From positions 1 to 64,000 of the IMG/VR virus record IMGVR_UViG_3300032668_000017: 64,000 nt of DNA. One strand, written 5' to 3'. The notes below the pieces were generated by a model. The model saw nothing but the letters and a program-made list of their open reading frames with translations, was not told the origin of the DNA and made no database searches. The position numbers and the translations under genes were made by a program. Below are positions 1 through 54,214 of the stretch, piece by piece. This DNA is from a virus. How positions within the stretch are numbered: position 1 is the stretch's first letter; each line of letters opens with the position of its first letter.

Positions 1-2184
1 AGTGTCAAACTTCTTGAAAACTCCAGCACTTTCTTCAAAAAAATTGAGGAAACCAAACAATGCGCCCAGCTTGAGCACTACAAAGCTCACGCATCAGAAG
101 ACGGCATGGAGCCGTTGTTTTTCAATATAGTCTCTTGGGCTAGGCGTTGCGATGACGGCTATGAATGGGCTAAGAAACTCGGGGATATGCACCCCTACGA
201 TGAAGACCGAATCAACGCTAAGTGGCACGCTACTAAAGGTCCGAGCCCATGCTTAAAGCTAGATGAAGTAAACCCCGGCATCTGCACAGGCTGTCCGCAC
301 TTTGGGAAAATTACTAACCCTCTGGTATGGGGTAAAGAGCTAAAGACTGACAATACTGAAAAAGAAATTGTCATGGAGCGTGGTGTGCCTGTTGACAAAG
401 AAGTTGTAGAAGTCGATGCTCCAGTAGTAACTAAACCAGTCCCACCAAGAAACTATAGCTATGGTCAGAACGGCGGTATCTATGTAGATCAGACCATAGA
501 AGACGCTCAGGGAAACAAAACGCGTAAGCAGATCATGCTACTGCCATATGATGTATTCGTGGTAGATATTTTGAATCGCAACGGCGACCACATTGTTCAC
601 ATGGTAGCGTGTAGACCTGAGGGGAATGTAGATGTCTTGCTCCCACAACGGGCGGTAGTTAGTAAAGACGAGACAGTCAAGGCGCTGGCTAGTCAAAACA
701 TTATTGCTTCGTTCGGTTCAGGTAATGATAAGAACCTATTTGAATATGTAAGAGCCTGTGTAGAGCAAGCTAGTGCCAACAAAAAAGCCATCAAGATTCC
801 TAACAACTGCGGCTGGCAAGAAGACAAAACCTTCGTATACAACAGCCACATCTATACACCCACAGGCAAGAAAATATTTGTGCCTACCCCCGGCTTGGAG
901 AACATTAACCAGCACACCGCCCCATCAGGCAACATAAGTGATTGGCGAGATGTCATTAACCTATTTATCAAGCGGGAGATTTGGAACATTCTGACTATGG
1001 GCTTGGTCGGACCTGCATCACTGCTTATGGAGTTCTCAGGCTTTAACGGCATGACATACCACTTAGGCTCAAGCGAATCAGGAACAGGTAAATCGTTGGC
1101 GCTATCTATTGCTGAAAGTTTCTTTGGTCAACCCGGAATGTATCGTGTAGGTCAGGCAACATCGGCGGTAGCTCTGCAACAGCGTCAGGGTATTTTAGGT
1201 AGCTTGCCACTAGTAACCGATGAGATTACCGCTAAGAACCGAGGCGACTTTGAATGGCTTCCTATCTTCTTGCTAGACCAGTCACAGGGTAAAGGCAAAG
1301 AGCGTATGGAGAGTAACGCCAACAAGGAACGCTTGAATGTTCTGAACTGGAAATCTACCGCCCTATTAACTTCTAATACCCACGTCTTTGACTTCTTAGG
1401 TGGTATGCGCAAGCACGCTTCCCAAGCTGAGATGTTGCGGGTTTTAGAAGAATGTCCTACTGTTAAACTGGAATGGAACGAGGTAGAATCATCCATACTA
1501 GATAAGCTAAAGACCAACTACGGCGTGGCAGGCGATATGCTAATACGCTGGATGGTTCAGAATCAGGAGATAGTCCGTGAAGTCTACAAGAAAACCCACG
1601 AGTCACTTAAGAAAGAATTTGAGTCGACAAACGATGAGCGGTACTGGTCTGCTGGTAATGCTGCTGTTGTTGCTGTTACTATTTTACTTGGTTCTAAGTA
1701 TTCCAACGTTATTGATATCCCAGTTGGGCCAGTCATCAAAGTCCTTCGGGGTATGGTTGATAGGGCGAGGATTGTAGTATTCGGTTCTAGAAAGTCTGCT
1801 GAAGATGTATTGAACGCATACACTAGAGAGAACTACGGCAAGTTCATTGTAGTTAAAGACTATAACGGCAAGCTAGAAGCCATGCTTGGCGATGGCGGTG
1901 TGGTAGACCAAAGTATTACACGCTCACAGATTGCGGGGCGGGTAGACCATAACGTGACGCAAGGCTACATAGATTACTATATTGAAGAACAACAGCTTCG
2001 CTCACATTGCGTTACCATGAGTTTCGGTTACTCGGAATTTAAAAAGCAGATGGAATCTTTGAAGCATTTCAGCGTAAAGTATTTAAAGAAAAATATGCTG
2101 GCTAAAACCAAAGGTCCTAGTATGCGGGTCAACGTGATGCAGATTAGTCGCCGTATAGACGAAGAAGATGGGCAGGAAAATTAG
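1..2184 (+). CDS. DUF927-type primase/helicase ATPase (5' end outside window)
   Basis: The frame is open from base 1, so the gene starts left of the window; the first internal ATG is at 106. The product is probably the helicase half of a phage primase-helicase acting at the replication fork. A cysteine-rich segment at about 241-312 (Pro-Cys, then Cys-Thr-Gly-Cys-Pro-His-Phe-Gly-Lys) resembles the zinc-binding piece that joins primase and helicase parts in phage proteins. A P-loop GSSESGTGKS lies at 1066-1095 and a Walker B-like strand LPLVTDEI at about 1204-1227. Any primase catalytic domain would be upstream of base 1. The rightward polarity matches the replication genes at the other end of the window. 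A D5- or VirE-like helicase label is possible; the ATPase assignment is firm, the exact family less so. Confidence 0.8.
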   Translation, partial: SVKLLENSSTFFKKIEETKQCAQLEHYKAHASEDGMEPLFFNIVSWARRCDDGYEWAKKLGDMHPYDEDRINAKWHATKGPSPCLKLDEVNPGICTGCPHFGKITNPLVWGKELKTDNTEKEIVMERGVPVDKEVVEVDAPVVTKPVPPRNYSYGQNGGIYVDQTIEDAQGNKTRKQIMLLPYDVFVVDILNRNGDHIVHMVACRPEGNVDVLLPQRAVVSKDETVKALASQNIIASFGSGNDKNLFEYVRACVEQASANKKAIKIPNNCGWQEDKTFVYNSHIYTPTGKKIFVPTPGLENINQHTAPSGNISDWRDVINLFIKREIWNILTMGLVGPASLLMEFSGFNGMTYHLGSSESGTGKSLALSIAESFFGQPGMYRVGQATSAVALQQRQGILGSLPLVTDEITAKNRGDFEWLPIFLLDQSQGKGKERMESNANKERLNVLNWKSTALLTSNTHVFDFLGGMRKHASQAEMLRVLEECPTVKLEWNEVESSILDKLKTNYGVAGDMLIRWMVQNQEIVREVYKKTHESLKKEFESTNDERYWSAGNAAVVAVTILLGSKYSNVIDIPVGPVIKVLRGMVDRARIVVFGSRKSAEDVLNAYTRENYGKFIVVKDYNGKLEAMLGDGGVVDQSITRSQIAGRVDHNVTQGYIDYYIEEQQLRSHCVTMSFGYSEFKKQMESLKHFSVKYLKKNMLAKTKGPSMRVNVMQISRRIDEEDGQEN

Positions 2185-34475: not shown

Positions 34476-34647
34476 AATAAATTGTCCTATGCAAAGTAAG
34501 CTCATACCAATCGTTGCATCGTCTGCTGGGGCAGTCCGGTATAAGCAATCACCCAGTTAGCGTTAGTTTACTCTTTTTTAGTTTTTGTGCAAGGATTTTT
34601 AAGTAAAATGATAGAAATTGGGCAAATATTTTGAGGGGTTATGGGAA

Positions 34648-35136
34648 ATGAAATTCACAGTAAAAAAAGTAGACATCAGAAATCTGGCTATTCAAAATCT
34701 CCTACTATTCCTTCAAAGACAGATACTACCCGCGGATTCCCCTTACAAGCCGGACCGGGGTCATTGGTGGATTGCGTATGCAGAGTGCGGGAAGCCTGTA
34801 GCTTTTGCGGGTTTGGTGCGCTCACAGAAATGGAACGATACAGGTTATTTATGTAGAGCTGGCGTGATGGATGGTTTTACTGGGCACGGTTTACAAAAGC
34901 GTCTTATACTTGCGCGAATCAAACAAGCTAGGAAGTTAGGATGGAATTGGCTAATTACCGATACAACAAACAATCCAGCATCATCGAACTCGCTGATCAA
35001 TGCGGGCTTCAAAATCTATCGACCCGGCCAGCCTTGGAGCTGGAAACATTCAATCTATTGGCGATATAAGGTAAACCCAGATGCCGTACAAAGACAAGAA
35101 CGTGCAAAAAGCGTACTACAAGCAAAGCAGCCGTAA
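34648..35136 (+). CDS. GNAT acetyltransferase-like protein, reversed relative to the operon
   Basis: 162 residues from ATG 34648, nine bases after GAGGGG. GNAT features: AECGKPVAFAGLV (strand), RAGVMDGFTGHGLQKRLI with the acetyl-CoA loop G-F-T-G-H-G-L, and a C-terminal SLINAGFKIYRPGQPWSW. It probably acetylates a small molecule or protein. It reads rightwards inside the leftward capsid operon together with the HNH gene, so it behaves like an added cargo gene with its own promoter. Confidence 0.75.
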   Translation: MKFTVKKVDIRNLAIQNLLLFLQRQILPADSPYKPDRGHWWIAYAECGKPVAFAGLVRSQKWNDTGYLCRAGVMDGFTGHGLQKRLILARIKQARKLGWNWLITDTTNNPASSNSLINAGFKIYRPGQPWSWKHSIYWRYKVNPDAVQRQERAKSVLQAKQP

Positions 35137-49697: not shown

Positions 49698-50672
49698 ATG
49701 AGAACATACAACGAAGCAGTAGCGCATTACGAGAAGTGCAAAGCACCAACAAGAAGCGCCAAGTGGTTAGCTATGCCTGACAAACCAAGATACCTACGCA
49801 ATGTATCAGCAGACCATATGGGTATTCACAAGACAGACGAGGGCGCTATTTACTATCGCCTTTACAACACCAATGTAGCTATCTTCTATCCACCCGAAGC
49901 CAACGGCGACCGCAAGGTAGTCACTAACTTCTACAACAGTCAGACCACTAGCATCTTTATGTATGAGAATGGCTTGCACTACTACGAGCAGACAACAACA
50001 GAAGGTAAGCAAGTCAAAGTTCCGTATGTAGCATCGTGGGACAGAGATAAGCAACAACATACACCATCGGCAGTTCTTTACTTTGATAGCAACGACAAGC
50101 TGATCGTCGAGCGCTCACATCACAAGGACATCTATACATTCAAGTCATCAGCCGAGGACAAGGAGAAGCGCAAGGAGTTTAAGAAGAAAGTAGATGTATT
50201 GATGACGCTTGCGATGTTCAGACTACCTGAGTATCGAGCCAATGTAACTATCGAGCAAGAGCTAGGTGAACCATTCGGCACGCAGTATCGCAACAAGCCA
50301 CAGTCTATTGATGACTTCGAGCACACAGTAAGCAAGCTAGGTTCAGATGCAACCGAACACCCCGAATACATTCAGCACTTCTTGGATATGGGGCAAGCGG
50401 TATTCAATATCCTAGCTAGCAAGAAAGTCTACAACCATATCCCTGAGGGTGAGCGTTGGCAAGGTAGTTTGTTTAGAACATGGAGCGCAACACCTAACGA
50501 AATAGAAGCCAAACGCAAAACGCAACAAGCAATCGCAGATCAAGTCACCGCCGAGGAGTTCAAGAAGTCGTTAACAACCCGCTTGTTACAGATAGCCGAC
50601 CTCAAGACTGGCTCGGTCAAAACCCCTTGGGGTCAGTTCATGGATACTATCCCACGCAAATACTACATTTAG
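49698..50672 (+). CDS. 324-residue early protein of unknown function
   Basis: AAAGGAATCAAA before the ATG. The first ~120 residues are beta-rich with a repeated 'value in a readout' style (IYYRLYNTNVAIFYPPEANG, TSIFMYENGLHYYEQTTTEG); the second half is charged and helical (AEDKEKRKEFKKKVDVLMTL, RKTQQAIADQVTAEEFKKSL). No family recognised. It directly precedes the AAA+/VWA operon and may belong to that unit. Confidence 0.7.
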   Translation: MRTYNEAVAHYEKCKAPTRSAKWLAMPDKPRYLRNVSADHMGIHKTDEGAIYYRLYNTNVAIFYPPEANGDRKVVTNFYNSQTTSIFMYENGLHYYEQTTTEGKQVKVPYVASWDRDKQQHTPSAVLYFDSNDKLIVERSHHKDIYTFKSSAEDKEKRKEFKKKVDVLMTLAMFRLPEYRANVTIEQELGEPFGTQYRNKPQSIDDFEHTVSKLGSDATEHPEYIQHFLDMGQAVFNILASKKVYNHIPEGERWQGSLFRTWSATPNEIEAKRKTQQAIADQVTAEEFKKSLTTRLLQIADLKTGSVKTPWGQFMDTIPRKYYI

Positions 50673-50823: not shown

Positions 50824-51945
50824 ATGCAAATGCTTTCATTCAAACAAGTAACGCAGTTAATAAAATCAGTAGGTCATAAAAGAACCATAATAGTAGAAGG
50901 AGAAAACGGGATCGGTAAGACTGGTCTGTTCTATCACCTAGCTAACGACCCCTTCTTTGCTAACCATGTTCATGTAGACCCAATCGACTGCACGCAGTTA
51001 TCAGACGGCTCGGTGTGGATGCCTGACATTGACAGAGAGAAGGGTGTCAGTCGTGAGTTACCCAACGAGCGCTTCGGTGTTCACAAAGATAATCAGAAGG
51101 GTATCAACGGCTCTCGCCCCGCACTTGTATTCTTAGACGAGATCGCAAAGGCTCGGCAGTATATCAAAGATGTGCTAGCCCCGATCGTGTATGAGCGTCG
51201 TGTTGGTAACTACCATATGCCCGAGGGTAGCGTAGTATTCTGTGCAACGAATTTAAGTGTAGAAGGTTTAGGTGATTCCATTCAAGCGCACTTGCGTAAT
51301 CGTTTAGTGTTCGTCAAGATGCGTAAGCCTACGCAAACCGAGTGGCGTGAGTGGGCTATTGATCGTGGCTTAGCACCTGAGGTTATCGCATGGACTGACG
51401 AGTTAGGTCAGACATTGTTTGATAGCTTCCTTGATTATCAGACTGGTGCTAAGTATGACGGACAGAAGATGGAAGCACACAATCAATACATCTTCAATCC
51501 ATCTATTGCACAGACTTCATATGTCACACCACGCTCGCTTCATGCCGCTTCGGATATTGTGTATGCCAAAGATGGTATGGACAACGACACCTTGCTAGCC
51601 GCTTTATCAGGCACGATGGGTGAGGCTGGTGCAGAGGGACTCAAGGCTTTCATTCAGTTCGGTGAGCAGACTCAACCATTCCCACGCATTGTCGCTGAGC
51701 CTAAGACTTGTCCTGTGCCTGACAATCCAGTAGCGCAGATCATTACAGTTCTCAAGTGCATTACACAAACCAACACCCGAGAGGAAGCTGATAGTGTTTG
51801 CGAATACATCTTGCGTATGCGTAAGGAGATGCAGTCTATGTTCTGTCACAACCTTGCACAATCATCAAGAGTATCTAACTTCGTGACTGTCAAGCCATTC
51901 CAAACCATGCTTCAAGATAACAAGATTTACTTCACAGGTAAGTGA
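50824..51945 (+). CDS. AAA+ ATPase, MoxR/CobS-like
   Basis: 373 residues. Walker A GENGIGKT at 26-33, Walker B LVFLDEI at 101-107, a sensor-1-like FCATNLSVEG and an arginine-rich AHLRNRLVFVKMRKPT. This layout is that of MoxR/CobS-type AAA+ proteins, which remodel partners through VWA-domain proteins. It heads a unit with the VWA gene (52111) and the DUF3150-like gene (53342). AAAGGT precedes the ATG by about ten bases. Substrate unknown. Confidence 0.85.
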   Translation: MQMLSFKQVTQLIKSVGHKRTIIVEGENGIGKTGLFYHLANDPFFANHVHVDPIDCTQLSDGSVWMPDIDREKGVSRELPNERFGVHKDNQKGINGSRPALVFLDEIAKARQYIKDVLAPIVYERRVGNYHMPEGSVVFCATNLSVEGLGDSIQAHLRNRLVFVKMRKPTQTEWREWAIDRGLAPEVIAWTDELGQTLFDSFLDYQTGAKYDGQKMEAHNQYIFNPSIAQTSYVTPRSLHAASDIVYAKDGMDNDTLLAALSGTMGEAGAEGLKAFIQFGEQTQPFPRIVAEPKTCPVPDNPVAQIITVLKCITQTNTREEADSVCEYILRMRKEMQSMFCHNLAQSSRVSNFVTVKPFQTMLQDNKIYFTGK

Positions 51946-51946
51946 C

Positions 51947-52114
51947 ATGAAGACAGAACAGTTCGAGGTAGGGTATTCAATATACCAAGTAGCTGATGGT
52001 GGCTTCAGAGTATGGAAGCTGGACGAGAATGGTAAACGCACTAAGCAATTAAAAGGCGAGTATGAGTTCTATGCCAATGCGGTGTGCGCTTTGATAAGGG
52101 AGTTAACAAAATGA
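51947..52114 (+). CDS. 55-residue protein between the ATPase and VWA genes
   Basis: Starts one base after the ATPase stop and ends in an ATGA overlap with the VWA gene. Sequence pattern FEVGYSIYQVADGGFRVWKL, then a helix YEFYANAVCALIRELTK. The tight coupling suggests it is part of the same complex or pathway. Unknown. Confidence 0.65.
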   Translation: MKTEQFEVGYSIYQVADGGFRVWKLDENGKRTKQLKGEYEFYANAVCALIRELTK

Positions 52115-53322
52115 GTTCAACATGGGAGAAGATGTCACTCAATGATCGTATCGTTGCGTGCCATGTAGATATTACTAATCACAAAGATTTCGCTACGCTA
52201 TCGGGTGTAGTGTATGTAGGTGATGTTAAGTTAGACGATGACATTGTGACTGCCGCTACTGATGGTCGTAATGTTTACTATGCGCCTAGCTTCATCGGCG
52301 ATATGACTCGCAAGCAACTACGCTATCTAGTTCTACACGAGTCGTTACACAAAGCACTACACCATTGTTCAGCGTATCTTAGTCTGTGCAAGAAGTATCC
52401 AGCGCTATGCAACAAGGCTATGGACTATGTAGTCAACGGCACGATAGAAGAAACCGACCCGACCTTTGCCTTTGTAGAACGACCAACCAAAGTAGCACCG
52501 CTTGTTGATGCTAAGTATCTAGGCTGGTCATTCGTCGAGGTGTTGCAAGACTTAATCAAGGAGTGCGAGGAGTCAGGCGGTGACCCTACTGCTGGCAACG
52601 GCGATGGTGCTGGTGCTGGTGATTGTTTAGATGGGCATATCCTCGGTAAGCTAGCTGAAGCTCTCGAAGCCAAGACTGCACAAGAGATTACTGAAGCGTT
52701 GCATCAAGGCAAGATGTTAGCCAAGCGTATTCAAGATCGTGGCAATACTCGTAATGGTAGCGCGTTGGATAGGTTGACACAGAAGCGTGATACTAATTGG
52801 CGTGAGCATTTGCGTGAGTTCGTTACCCAGTTGTGTGAGGGTGATGACTATTCCCGCTTTGCCCCGCCTAACAAACGCTTACTACCTCAAGGCATACTCA
52901 TGCCGTCGCACTTCTCTGAGTCCACAGGCGAGCTTGTTGTTGCTTGTGATACATCGGGTTCCATGCACGGCTTGTATGCTACTGTGTTCGGTGAGATCGC
53001 ACGCATCTGTGAGAATGTTAAGCCTGACCAAGTGCGTGTTCTGTGGTGGGAGTGTGAGATAGAAGGCGAGCAGATATTCAAACCTCAAGACTTCCATCGC
53101 ATACCCGAGCTACTACAACCGCAAGGTGGTGGTGGCACACGACTGACTTGTGTAAGCGAATACTTTACAGCGCACAAACTAAAACCCAAAGCCTGTATCG
53201 TATTGTCTGACGGCTACATAGAATCAGACTACATACTACCCGACTGCCCTATCCTGTTCGGTGTAGTAGACAACGATAACTTCGTTAGCAACAAGGGCAA
53301 GACTGTCCGTATCTATTCATAA
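52111..53322 (+). CDS. VWA-domain metallopeptidase-like protein (CobT/ViaA-like partner)
   Basis: 403 residues from ATG 52111, the start inside the previous stop; an in-frame upstream start at 52084 is unneeded. N-terminal zincin-like domain with LVLHESLHKALHH (H76-E77-S-L-H80). Linker rich in Gly/Asp. C-terminal VWA domain with MIDAS DTSGS at 280-284 and GGGGTRLTCV later, then ACIVLSDGYIESDY. This pairing of predicted metallopeptidase and VWA domains recurs next to MoxR-like ATPases. It probably recognises a substrate for the ATPase; peptidase activity is unproved. Confidence 0.85.
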   Translation: MSSTWEKMSLNDRIVACHVDITNHKDFATLSGVVYVGDVKLDDDIVTAATDGRNVYYAPSFIGDMTRKQLRYLVLHESLHKALHHCSAYLSLCKKYPALCNKAMDYVVNGTIEETDPTFAFVERPTKVAPLVDAKYLGWSFVEVLQDLIKECEESGGDPTAGNGDGAGAGDCLDGHILGKLAEALEAKTAQEITEALHQGKMLAKRIQDRGNTRNGSALDRLTQKRDTNWREHLREFVTQLCEGDDYSRFAPPNKRLLPQGILMPSHFSESTGELVVACDTSGSMHGLYATVFGEIARICENVKPDQVRVLWWECEIEGEQIFKPQDFHRIPELLQPQGGGGTRLTCVSEYFTAHKLKPKACIVLSDGYIESDYILPDCPILFGVVDNDNFVSNKGKTVRIYS

Positions 53323-53341
53323 ACAACAAAGGAGAATTACT

Positions 53342-54214
53342 ATGACACGCTTTAACATTGATACCTGTGCTATGTTGGTAGAAGTAAATGTTCGCCAATG
53401 GACTGCACGCAAACTAGATAGAAGCACAACCGATGAAGTGTTAGCCAGCAAGCAAGCTGGTAGTAAAGGTGCGGCTCGGGTCAACAAGAACCTGTTGGCT
53501 GGTCGCCCTGAGTTAGAAACAATCAACCAATGTGTAGGTGAGATTCGCACCTATGTCTACGATGTTACTTTGCCTTGGTCTGATAGTGGCTTAAGACTGT
53601 TGACTACCGCTAAGTTCATGGAGTTCAACCAGCGTATGCAAGAGTATGAGGATAAGTTCAATGCACTTGTTGACGACTTCGTTAACACCTATCCTACTCT
53701 GATTACTGCACAAGCTATGGCGCTAGGTGATATGTTCAACCGCACCGAGTATCCAACACCTGACGACATCAAACACCGCTTCGACTTCCGAGTTAACTAT
53801 ATGCCTGTGCCAACCTCAGGCGACTTCCGAGTTGATGTGGGTAATGATGCACAAGCAGAGCTACAAAAGAAGTTAGCAAAGCTAGCTGATGAGCGTATCG
53901 AAAACGCTATGGGTGACATCAAGACCCGACTCAAGGATCACCTCAAGCGTATGTCAGACAGACTGACTGTGGACTATACAGGTCACAAGGCGCAACCTCG
54001 TATGTTCCATGCGTCGTTATTAGATACGGCACAAGAGCTATGCTCACTAGCCAAAGACCTCAACATCACACAAGACAAGGAGTTAGAAAATGCACGCATC
54101 GCCTTGCACCAAGCTATCAATGGTCTGGAAGTTGACGACCTACGCAAAGACCTCGACACCCGCCAAGCGGTCAAGAAAGATGTTGATAGCATCTTGGACA
54201 AATTCAACTTCTAA
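53342..54214 (+). CDS. DUF3150-like protein, third member of the ATPase/VWA unit
   Basis: 290 residues with an AAAGGAGAATTACT leader. The pattern NVRQWTARKLDRSTTDEVLA, VNKNLLAGRPELETINQCVG, YVYDVTLPWSDSGLRLLTTA, FVNTYPTLI and a helical C-terminal half matches my recall of DUF3150 proteins that co-occur with CobS-like ATPases and VWA proteins. Helical and mildly charged throughout; no catalytic site is seen. Likely substrate or regulator of the ATPase/VWA complex. Confidence 0.7.
   Translation: MTRFNIDTCAMLVEVNVRQWTARKLDRSTTDEVLASKQAGSKGAARVNKNLLAGRPELETINQCVGEIRTYVYDVTLPWSDSGLRLLTTAKFMEFNQRMQEYEDKFNALVDDFVNTYPTLITAQAMALGDMFNRTEYPTPDDIKHRFDFRVNYMPVPTSGDFRVDVGNDAQAELQKKLAKLADERIENAMGDIKTRLKDHLKRMSDRLTVDYTGHKAQPRMFHASLLDTAQELCSLAKDLNITQDKELENARIALHQAINGLEVDDLRKDLDTRQAVKKDVDSILDKFNF

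What the first reader, a model, noticed from the sequence alone, without database searches (positions are those of the whole stretch)
50824..54214. Phage-borne AAA+ / VWA-metallopeptidase / DUF3150-like operon
Seen: an ATPase with clean Walker motifs (GENGIGKT, LVFLDEI), a tightly coupled 55-residue protein, a VWA protein with a HExxH motif and a DTSGS MIDAS, and a helical protein resembling DUF3150. Known: MoxR/CobS-type ATPases work with VWA proteins (CobST chelatase, RavA-ViaA) as remodelling machines. Inferred: in a phage this unit probably remodels a host or virion complex, or inserts metal. Its substrate and purpose are open, and the coupled small gene may be a new component.
Basis: partly seen in the sequence, partly recalled or inferred. 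Interest (0 to 1): 0.75.

Follow-up and report, generated by a model that had tools for sequence, protein, structure and literature searches.

The report
Phage and plasmid AAA+/VWA-metallopeptidase/DUF3150 machine
This aquatic phage carries a three-gene ATP-driven protein-remodelling machine, one part of which has a protease-like active site; the same three-gene set is standard equipment of many conjugative plasmids, so it probably helps incoming mobile DNA establish itself and replicate rather than building the virus particle or inserting cobalt.

Summary
[quoted passage not shown] All 20 non-redundant related phage loci with enough flank carry ATPase+VWA+DUF3150, in three gene orders, under purifying selection. 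The 55-aa gene is not a component: the ATPase-VWA junction is a cargo slot holding unrelated small ORFs, or none. A 324-aa upstream gene (49698-50672) usually travels with the triad.

The triad is not phage-specific. Burkholderiales plasmids carry the same metallopeptidase-VWA type. Conjugative IncP-7, IncHI2 and IncC plasmids carry AAA+/DUF3150/VWA, often beside ssb-bet-exo. Their VWA proteins look NorD/CobT-like, but all six examined keep an N-terminal HExxH, as do 5 of 6 in a separate genome sample; 0 of 10 B12-pathway CobT proteins do. Two isolate phages sharing this phage's capsid, portal and terminase lack the triad.

Best reading: a mobile-element ternary machine (AAA+ motor, VWA-metallopeptidase adaptor, DUF3150 third subunit) that remodels or cleaves a protein during establishment, replication or recombination of incoming DNA. 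Machine identity is well supported; substrate and proteolysis are inferred. Virion assembly and cobalt insertion are weaker rivals.

The parts
50824..51945 (+). MoxR-like AAA+ ATPase, 373 aa. Walker A GENGIGKT 50899-50922, Walker B LVFLDEI 51124-51144; sensor-1 N143, Arg-finger candidate R160, sensor-2 R237
   Evidence: phrog_1297 ATPase E 5.2e-40; motifs conserved across relatives; N4 gp24-type relatives in Schitoviridae
52111..53322 (+). Metallopeptidase-VWA protein, 403 aa (alternative GTG start 52084). HExxH 52336-52350, N-x3-D 52411-52425, MIDAS DTSGS 52948-52962, T343 53137-53139, D367 53209-53211
   Evidence: PF13203 and PF09967 above curated cut-offs; HExxH and MIDAS residues invariant in 16 relatives apart from one S/T-position change; HExxH kept in 13 of 14 proteins compared across phages and plasmids, the exception being Variovorax
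53342..54214 (+). DUF3150-like protein, 290 aa, third subunit of the triad
   Evidence: PF11348 E 3.9e-5, 1.4 bits under cut-off; best BFVD match is an annotated DUF3150 phage protein, E 8.5e-15; weak but near full-length profile match to plasmid DUF3150; same operon context as PF11348 proteins
51947..52114 (+). 55-aa ORF between ATPase and VWA: accessory cargo, judged NOT part of the machine
   Evidence: present at this junction only in contigs identical to the window; other phages have unrelated 54-73 aa ORFs or an 8-27 nt gap there
49698..50672 (+). 324-aa upstream protein of unknown fold; candidate fourth partner in this phage clade only
   Evidence: adjacent to the triad in 24 of 32 non-redundant loci and stays with it when order is rearranged (L070, L071); AlphaFold pLDDT 89.8 without a convincing structural match; absent from MinM2 and from the isolate-phage collection

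Best explanation
A ternary ATP-driven remodelling machine carried by mobile DNA. The AAA+ protein forms a MoxR-type ring (inferred from its motifs). The VWA protein is its co-chaperone: its MIDAS face captures a peptide of a target protein, and its N-terminal zincin-like HExxH domain may cleave that target. DUF3150 is a third subunit that travels with the pair in phages, plasmids and ICE-like loci. The shared purpose is most likely a step in the cell that conjugative DNA and phage DNA both need: clearing or re-arranging a host or element protein during establishment, replication or recombination of the incoming DNA. Shown here: gene content, motif conservation, co-occurrence across element types, neighbourhood, accessory status in phages. 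Inferred: ring, complex, proteolysis, timing, substrate.
For: Triad complete in 20 of 20 testable non-redundant phage loci, in three orders. Same triad on conjugative plasmids: pCAR1, R478, IncC with ssb-bet-exo inside the cluster, pMAQU02, PA83, Vibrio; Burkholderiales and Rhodovastum plasmids carry the phage VWA type (ATPase gene not annotated at L086). 1118 plasmid records match pCAR1 DUF3150, 969 typed conjugative. HExxH in all six plasmid VWAs and in 5 of 6 VWAs of a separate sample of 7 DUF3150 loci (two of the seven are close relatives); bet and exo beside 3 of those 7, ssb beside 3, a toprim gene beside 3. N-terminal domains of the two VWA classes align HExxH on HExxH, P 4e-6. In this phage the triad lies on the replication-gene strand with polA, a PD-(D/E)XK nuclease and an Hjc-like resolvase. 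N4 gp24/25 are middle genes (PMC4193335). Deleting s067, s068, s070, bet or exo from SXT cut transfer at most 10-fold (PMC2791158): helpful, not essential.
Against: No biochemical datum; no substrate. That SXT s067/s068/s070 are this triad is inferred from gene order and IncA/C orthology, not from sequence here. Neighbourhood with recombination genes is not universal (the pCAR1 triad is about 10-13 kb from ssb-recT; Burkholderiales triads lie by T4SS/PRTRC genes). The phage DUF3150 is under the Pfam cut-off. The PA5oct ATPase homologue is annotated as seen by mass spectrometry, which could mean a virion role in some phages. The Variovorax VWA has lost HExxH, so catalysis may be dispensable.
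Confidence: 0.5

Rival explanations
1. Virion assembly or maturation: the ATPase-VWA pair assembles tail or head parts and the metallopeptidase processes structural proteins, as proposed for jumbo phages (PMC7824862) by analogy with the Acidianus two-tailed virus.
For: Published proposal for the same MoxR plus metallopeptidase-VWA pair (PMC7824862); PA5oct ATPase homologue marked ESI-MS/MS (homology); in a Vequintavirus the VWA gene sits between tail genes.
Against: HTVC027P and DSL-LC04 share MCP (64-65%), TerL (51-54%), portal (39-42%), GroES-like and tail genes with this phage but lack ATPase, VWA and DUF3150; the triad lies among replication genes here and in N4-like phages; plasmids without virions keep it.
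Confidence: 0.17
2. Cobalt or other metal insertion: the pair is viral CobST working with host CobN to raise cobalamin supply, as proposed for tailed viruses in PMC8651126.
For: Published proposal for viral cobST clusters (PMC8651126); the IncC VWA N-terminus is weakly like PF06213 CobT (E 1.6e-5, under cut-off).
Against: The phage ATPase and VWA match neither CobS nor CobT models; no CobN or RNR in the 66.8-kb record; 0 of 10 chromosomal CobT carry HExxH while the triad VWAs do; that paper treats the peptidase annotation as a mistake, but here the peptidase motif is invariant.
Confidence: 0.06
3. Counter-defence: the machine disarms a host immune or restriction complex that attacks incoming DNA, whether phage or plasmid. 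A special case of the best explanation.
For: Largely a mobile-element family as far as seen: DUF3150 in 0 of 14 control genomes and 9 of 398 sampled genomes, 1118 plasmid records; accessory in phages.
Against: No known anti-defence family matched; no direct evidence; in IncC it lies beside recombination rather than anti-restriction genes.
Confidence: 0.2
4. Host-directed conflict or exclusion system, like the MoxR-vWA ternary systems of PMC7159879, in which the third protein sets off an effector.
For: Same logic of MoxR plus VWA plus a third protein (PMC7159879).
Against: No PADLOC match; no effector domain found among the neighbouring genes tested; DUF3150 is not VMAP, iSTAND or FtsH.
Confidence: 0.07

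Closest known systems
Phage N4 gp24/gp25 pair and its Schitoviridae homologues (EcP1 gp33/gp34)
   Same: Adjacent MoxR-like ATPase and metallopeptidase-VWA beside replication genes; EcP1 VWA alignable over 96% at 26% identity
   Different: No DUF3150 gene detected beside the pair in the two N4-like loci read
Cyanophage MinM2 / Pag-Yong1 / Pra-JY27 cluster
   Same: ATPase, DUF3150, VWA in one cluster; homologous capsid, portal, terminase
   Different: Order ATPase-small-DUF3150-3 small-VWA; proteins 25-28% identical; no 324-aa protein
Burkholderiales and Rhodovastum plasmid cassettes (L085-L089)
   Same: AAA+, DUF3150-like and the same DUF2201 metallopeptidase-VWA type
   Different: DUF3150 before VWA; beside T4SS, PRTRC, toprim or methyltransferase genes
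IncP-7 pCAR1 ORF101-103, IncHI2 R478, IncC and probably SXT/R391 cluster
   Same: AAA+, true PF11348 DUF3150, VWA with N-terminal HExxH
   Different: NorQ-like ATPase (CbbQ_C domain in pCAR1 and IncC); 584-668 aa NorD/CobT-like VWA with acidic linker; often with ssb-bet-exo
CobS-CobT cobaltochelatase motor
   Same: MoxR-type ATPase plus MIDAS VWA
   Different: CobT lacks HExxH (0 of 10); works with CobN
MoxR-vWA metallopeptidase pair of jumbo phages (PMC7824862)
   Same: Same two-protein architecture
   Different: Described as a pair without DUF3150; virion role proposed there

Membership tests
MoxR-clade AAA+ ATPase | Walker A and B, sensor 1, Arg finger, sensor 2 | tested here: met
   invariant or near-invariant in relatives
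MoxR-clade AAA+ ATPase | match to AAA_5 (PF07728) above cut-off | tested here: inconclusive
   15.3 bits against 22; Simplicispira homologue 24.9 bits
MoxR-clade AAA+ ATPase | helix-2 insert and hexameric ring | not tested
   no ATPase model was built; the two structure jobs went to DUF3150 and the 324-aa protein
DUF2201 metallopeptidase-VWA | PF13203 and PF09967 above curated cut-offs | tested here: met
   58.4 and 47.6 bits
DUF2201 metallopeptidase-VWA | HExxH and complete MIDAS (DxSxS, T, D) | tested here: met
DUF2201 metallopeptidase-VWA | metal-dependent proteolysis | not testable with these tools
   needs purified protein
DUF3150 (PF11348) | profile score over 24.9 bits | tested here: inconclusive
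   23.5 bits, E 3.9e-5; profile-profile 76% probability over residues 3-250; BFVD match E 8.5e-15 to a DUF3150 protein
DUF3150 (PF11348) | linked to AAA+ and VWA genes | tested here: met
CobST cobaltochelatase motor | PF06213/PF11775 CobT match | tested here: not met
   no hit for the window VWA
CobST cobaltochelatase motor | CobN partner in the same genome | tested here: not met
   none in the 66.8-kb record, though a host CobN could serve
MoxR-vWA ternary conflict systems (PMC7159879) | VMAP, iSTAND, FtsH or beta-propeller third component | tested here: not met
   no such Pfam or PADLOC match among the window genes tested
RavA-ViaA | RavA-specific C-terminal domains | tested here: not met
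   no such Pfam hit for the ATPase

The most novel reading that the evidence does not exclude
Phages, conjugative plasmids and ICEs share one three-part AAA+ metalloprotease-like machine (AAA+ / zincin-VWA / DUF3150) that acts on a common host barrier to incoming DNA; the VWA proteins annotated NorD- or CobT-like on these elements are active peptidases, not chelatase subunits.
Probability: 0.28. Interest if true: 0.85.

Novelty: new variant of a known kind. Interest (0 to 1): 0.62.

Why it matters
DUF3150 returned no paper in the library searched, yet the family sits on more than a thousand sequenced plasmids, most of them conjugative, including IncC plasmids. Linking it to the core ATPase/VWA genes of N4-like phages, and showing that a peptidase motif is kept in both element types but absent from CobT, turns two long-unexplained gene sets into one testable question and argues against the cobalamin reading for this group. 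It also gives a way to tell true CobT from mobile-element VWA proteins.

Tried and rejected
Small gene as new component: rejected. Virion assembly as general role: weakened (and plasmid distribution). Cobalamin: weakened. Known defence system: no PADLOC match of weight. Homology of the 324-aa protein to MinM2 MM2_72 upstream of its ATPase: none. Fold of the 324-aa protein: confident model but only weak matches (best VIA Z 5.6 over about 100 residues, TarM), so unexplained. DUF3150 model is mediocre (pLDDT 70, pTM 0.40); its PDB matches are generic helical bundles and are not used as evidence of function. No solved structure matches any of the four families by sequence (one chance hit, E 0.72). 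Global profile comparison of the two VWA classes aligned only a VWA stretch; the N-terminal comparison was needed. Genome scan with alignment A5 failed for lack of conserved stretches and a single-protein scan gave two loci. The CRISPRi-ART paper uses phages N4 and EdH4 but its main text gives nothing on gp24/gp25. One DUF3150 locus (L137) has a VWA without HExxH, not adjacent; another (L136) had no VWA in the stretch read; L135 and L137 had no AAA+ match there.

Full report
WHAT IS THERE. The four ORFs are real and correctly placed. The ATPase (50824-51945) matches phrog_1297 'ATPase' at E 5e-40. The VWA protein (52111-53322) scores over Pfam's cut-offs for PF13203 'putative metallopeptidase domain' and PF09967 VWA-like domain. 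The last protein matches DUF3150 at E 3.9e-5, 1.4 bits short of the cut-off. In 14-16 relatives down to about 45-50% identity the Walker motifs, sensor 1, the Arg finger, HExxH, the N-x3-D downstream of it and the MIDAS residues are conserved, nearly all without exception. Codon comparison shows strong purifying selection on all three.

THE PHAGE. The window is part of a 66,823-base IMG/VR record. Terminase, portal and capsid tie it to Pelagibacter phage HTVC027P, phage DSL-LC04 and cyanophage MinM2. Structural genes run on the minus strand, replication genes on the plus strand; the triad is on the plus strand, upstream of an Hjc-like resolvase, a family A DNA polymerase and a PD-(D/E)XK nuclease.

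CONSERVED CORE AND CARGO. From two IMG/VR scans I took 78 loci, 32 of them non-redundant. All 20 with at least 2.6 kb on each side of VWA hold ATPase, VWA and DUF3150. Orders: ATPase-VWA-DUF3150 in most, VWA-ATPase-DUF3150 twice, ATPase-DUF3150-VWA once. The ATPase-VWA junction is usually 8-27 nt; in some phages it holds one of several unrelated 54-73 aa ORFs, often overlapping the VWA start. The window's 55-aa ORF is one of these and occurs in only a few contigs. A 324-aa protein upstream keeps company with the triad even when order changes, evolves faster (pN/pS 0.21-0.43), folds confidently (pLDDT 90) and matches nothing convincing.

BEYOND PHAGES. Plasmids of Burkholderiales and Rhodovastum carry AAA+, DUF3150-like and the same metallopeptidase-VWA. 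True PF11348 proteins lie between or beside AAA+ and VWA genes on pCAR1, R478 and IncC, and annotated DUF3150 genes do so on pMAQU02, PA83 and a Vibrio plasmid; 1118 plasmid records match pCAR1 DUF3150, 969 typed conjugative. The pCAR1 transcriptome paper already records that ORF100-103 are conserved in R478, Rts1, SXT and R391 and names the MoxR-like and VWA proteins (PMC2642839). In IncC the cluster encloses ssb-bet-exo; bet and exo of SXT and IncA/C are driven by the transfer activators SetCD and AcaCD (PMC4542580; s089 operon, PMC4344509). That the triad shares that operon is inferred from position.

A SHARED PEPTIDASE MOTIF. These plasmid VWA proteins are annotated NorD- or VWA-like, without a peptidase domain. 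All six examined, 20-36% identical to the first, have HExxH at residues 57-70; chance in shuffled sequence is 0.6-2.5% each. N-terminal profiles of the two VWA classes align HExxH on HExxH and TDG on TDG (probability 87%, P 4e-6). As a separate check I drew 398 genomes of one phylum: 9 had DUF3150 matches. Of seven full loci read, six have a VWA gene, five of these with HExxH at residues 60-71; five have the AAA+ gene; bet and exo lie beside three, ssb beside three. Two of the seven (L132, L133) are close relatives, so they count as little more than one. In contrast none of ten chromosomal CobT proteins has HExxH; the eleventh, weak CobT hit that does have it (L120) turned out to be the VWA next to a DUF3150 gene. 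One plasmid VWA of the DUF2201 type (Variovorax) has lost it.

MECHANISM. Known MoxR-VWA pairs work by VWA capture of a target and ATPase-driven remodelling (PMC7159879; NorQD, PMC13036017). I infer the same here, with DUF3150 as third subunit and possible cleavage by the HExxH domain. Because phages and conjugative elements share the set, the target should matter to both: establishment, replication or recombination of incoming DNA. The virion and cobalamin proposals in the literature fit this phage less well, but neither is excluded for other phages.

CONFIDENCE. Machine identity (MoxR plus metallopeptidase-VWA with DUF3150): about 0.9. Functional class as stated: about 0.5. Proteolysis: about 0.5. 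Substrate: unknown.

Noticed in passing
window 52111-53322; phage records: PHROG family phrog_1314 is named 'HNH endonuclease' although the members tested are metallopeptidase-VWA proteins with no HNH hit; the wrong name has spread to many phage records.
   Followed up: partly
window 49698-50672: Fast-evolving 324-aa protein with a confident predicted fold that matches nothing convincing, linked to the triad in this phage clade.
   Followed up: partly
ATPase-VWA junction, window 51946-52111 and loci L025, L026, L030, L031, L041, L059, L061: Insertion slot for unrelated small ORFs, several with overlapping stop/start to the next gene.
   Followed up: yes
   Followed up: no
L004 252-1718: In a Vequintavirus the metallopeptidase-VWA gene lies between tail genes on the strand opposite to the ATPase gene.
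   Followed up: partly
OQ594354, OL906435, PP438419: Three cyanophage records from different named hosts all have length 65,014 and give identical match statistics; possibly one phage deposited three times.
   Followed up: no
L097 8342-10138: IncC VWA N-terminus weakly matches Pfam CobT (PF06213, 25.0 bits against 26.1), hinting that CobT may be a relative that lost the peptidase motif.
   Followed up: partly
window 106-2184: 692-aa protein with DUF927 and primase/helicase profile matches, on the replication strand.
   Followed up: no
window 34618-35133: Plus-strand ORF with a GNAT acetyltransferase match inside the minus-strand structural region.
   Followed up: no
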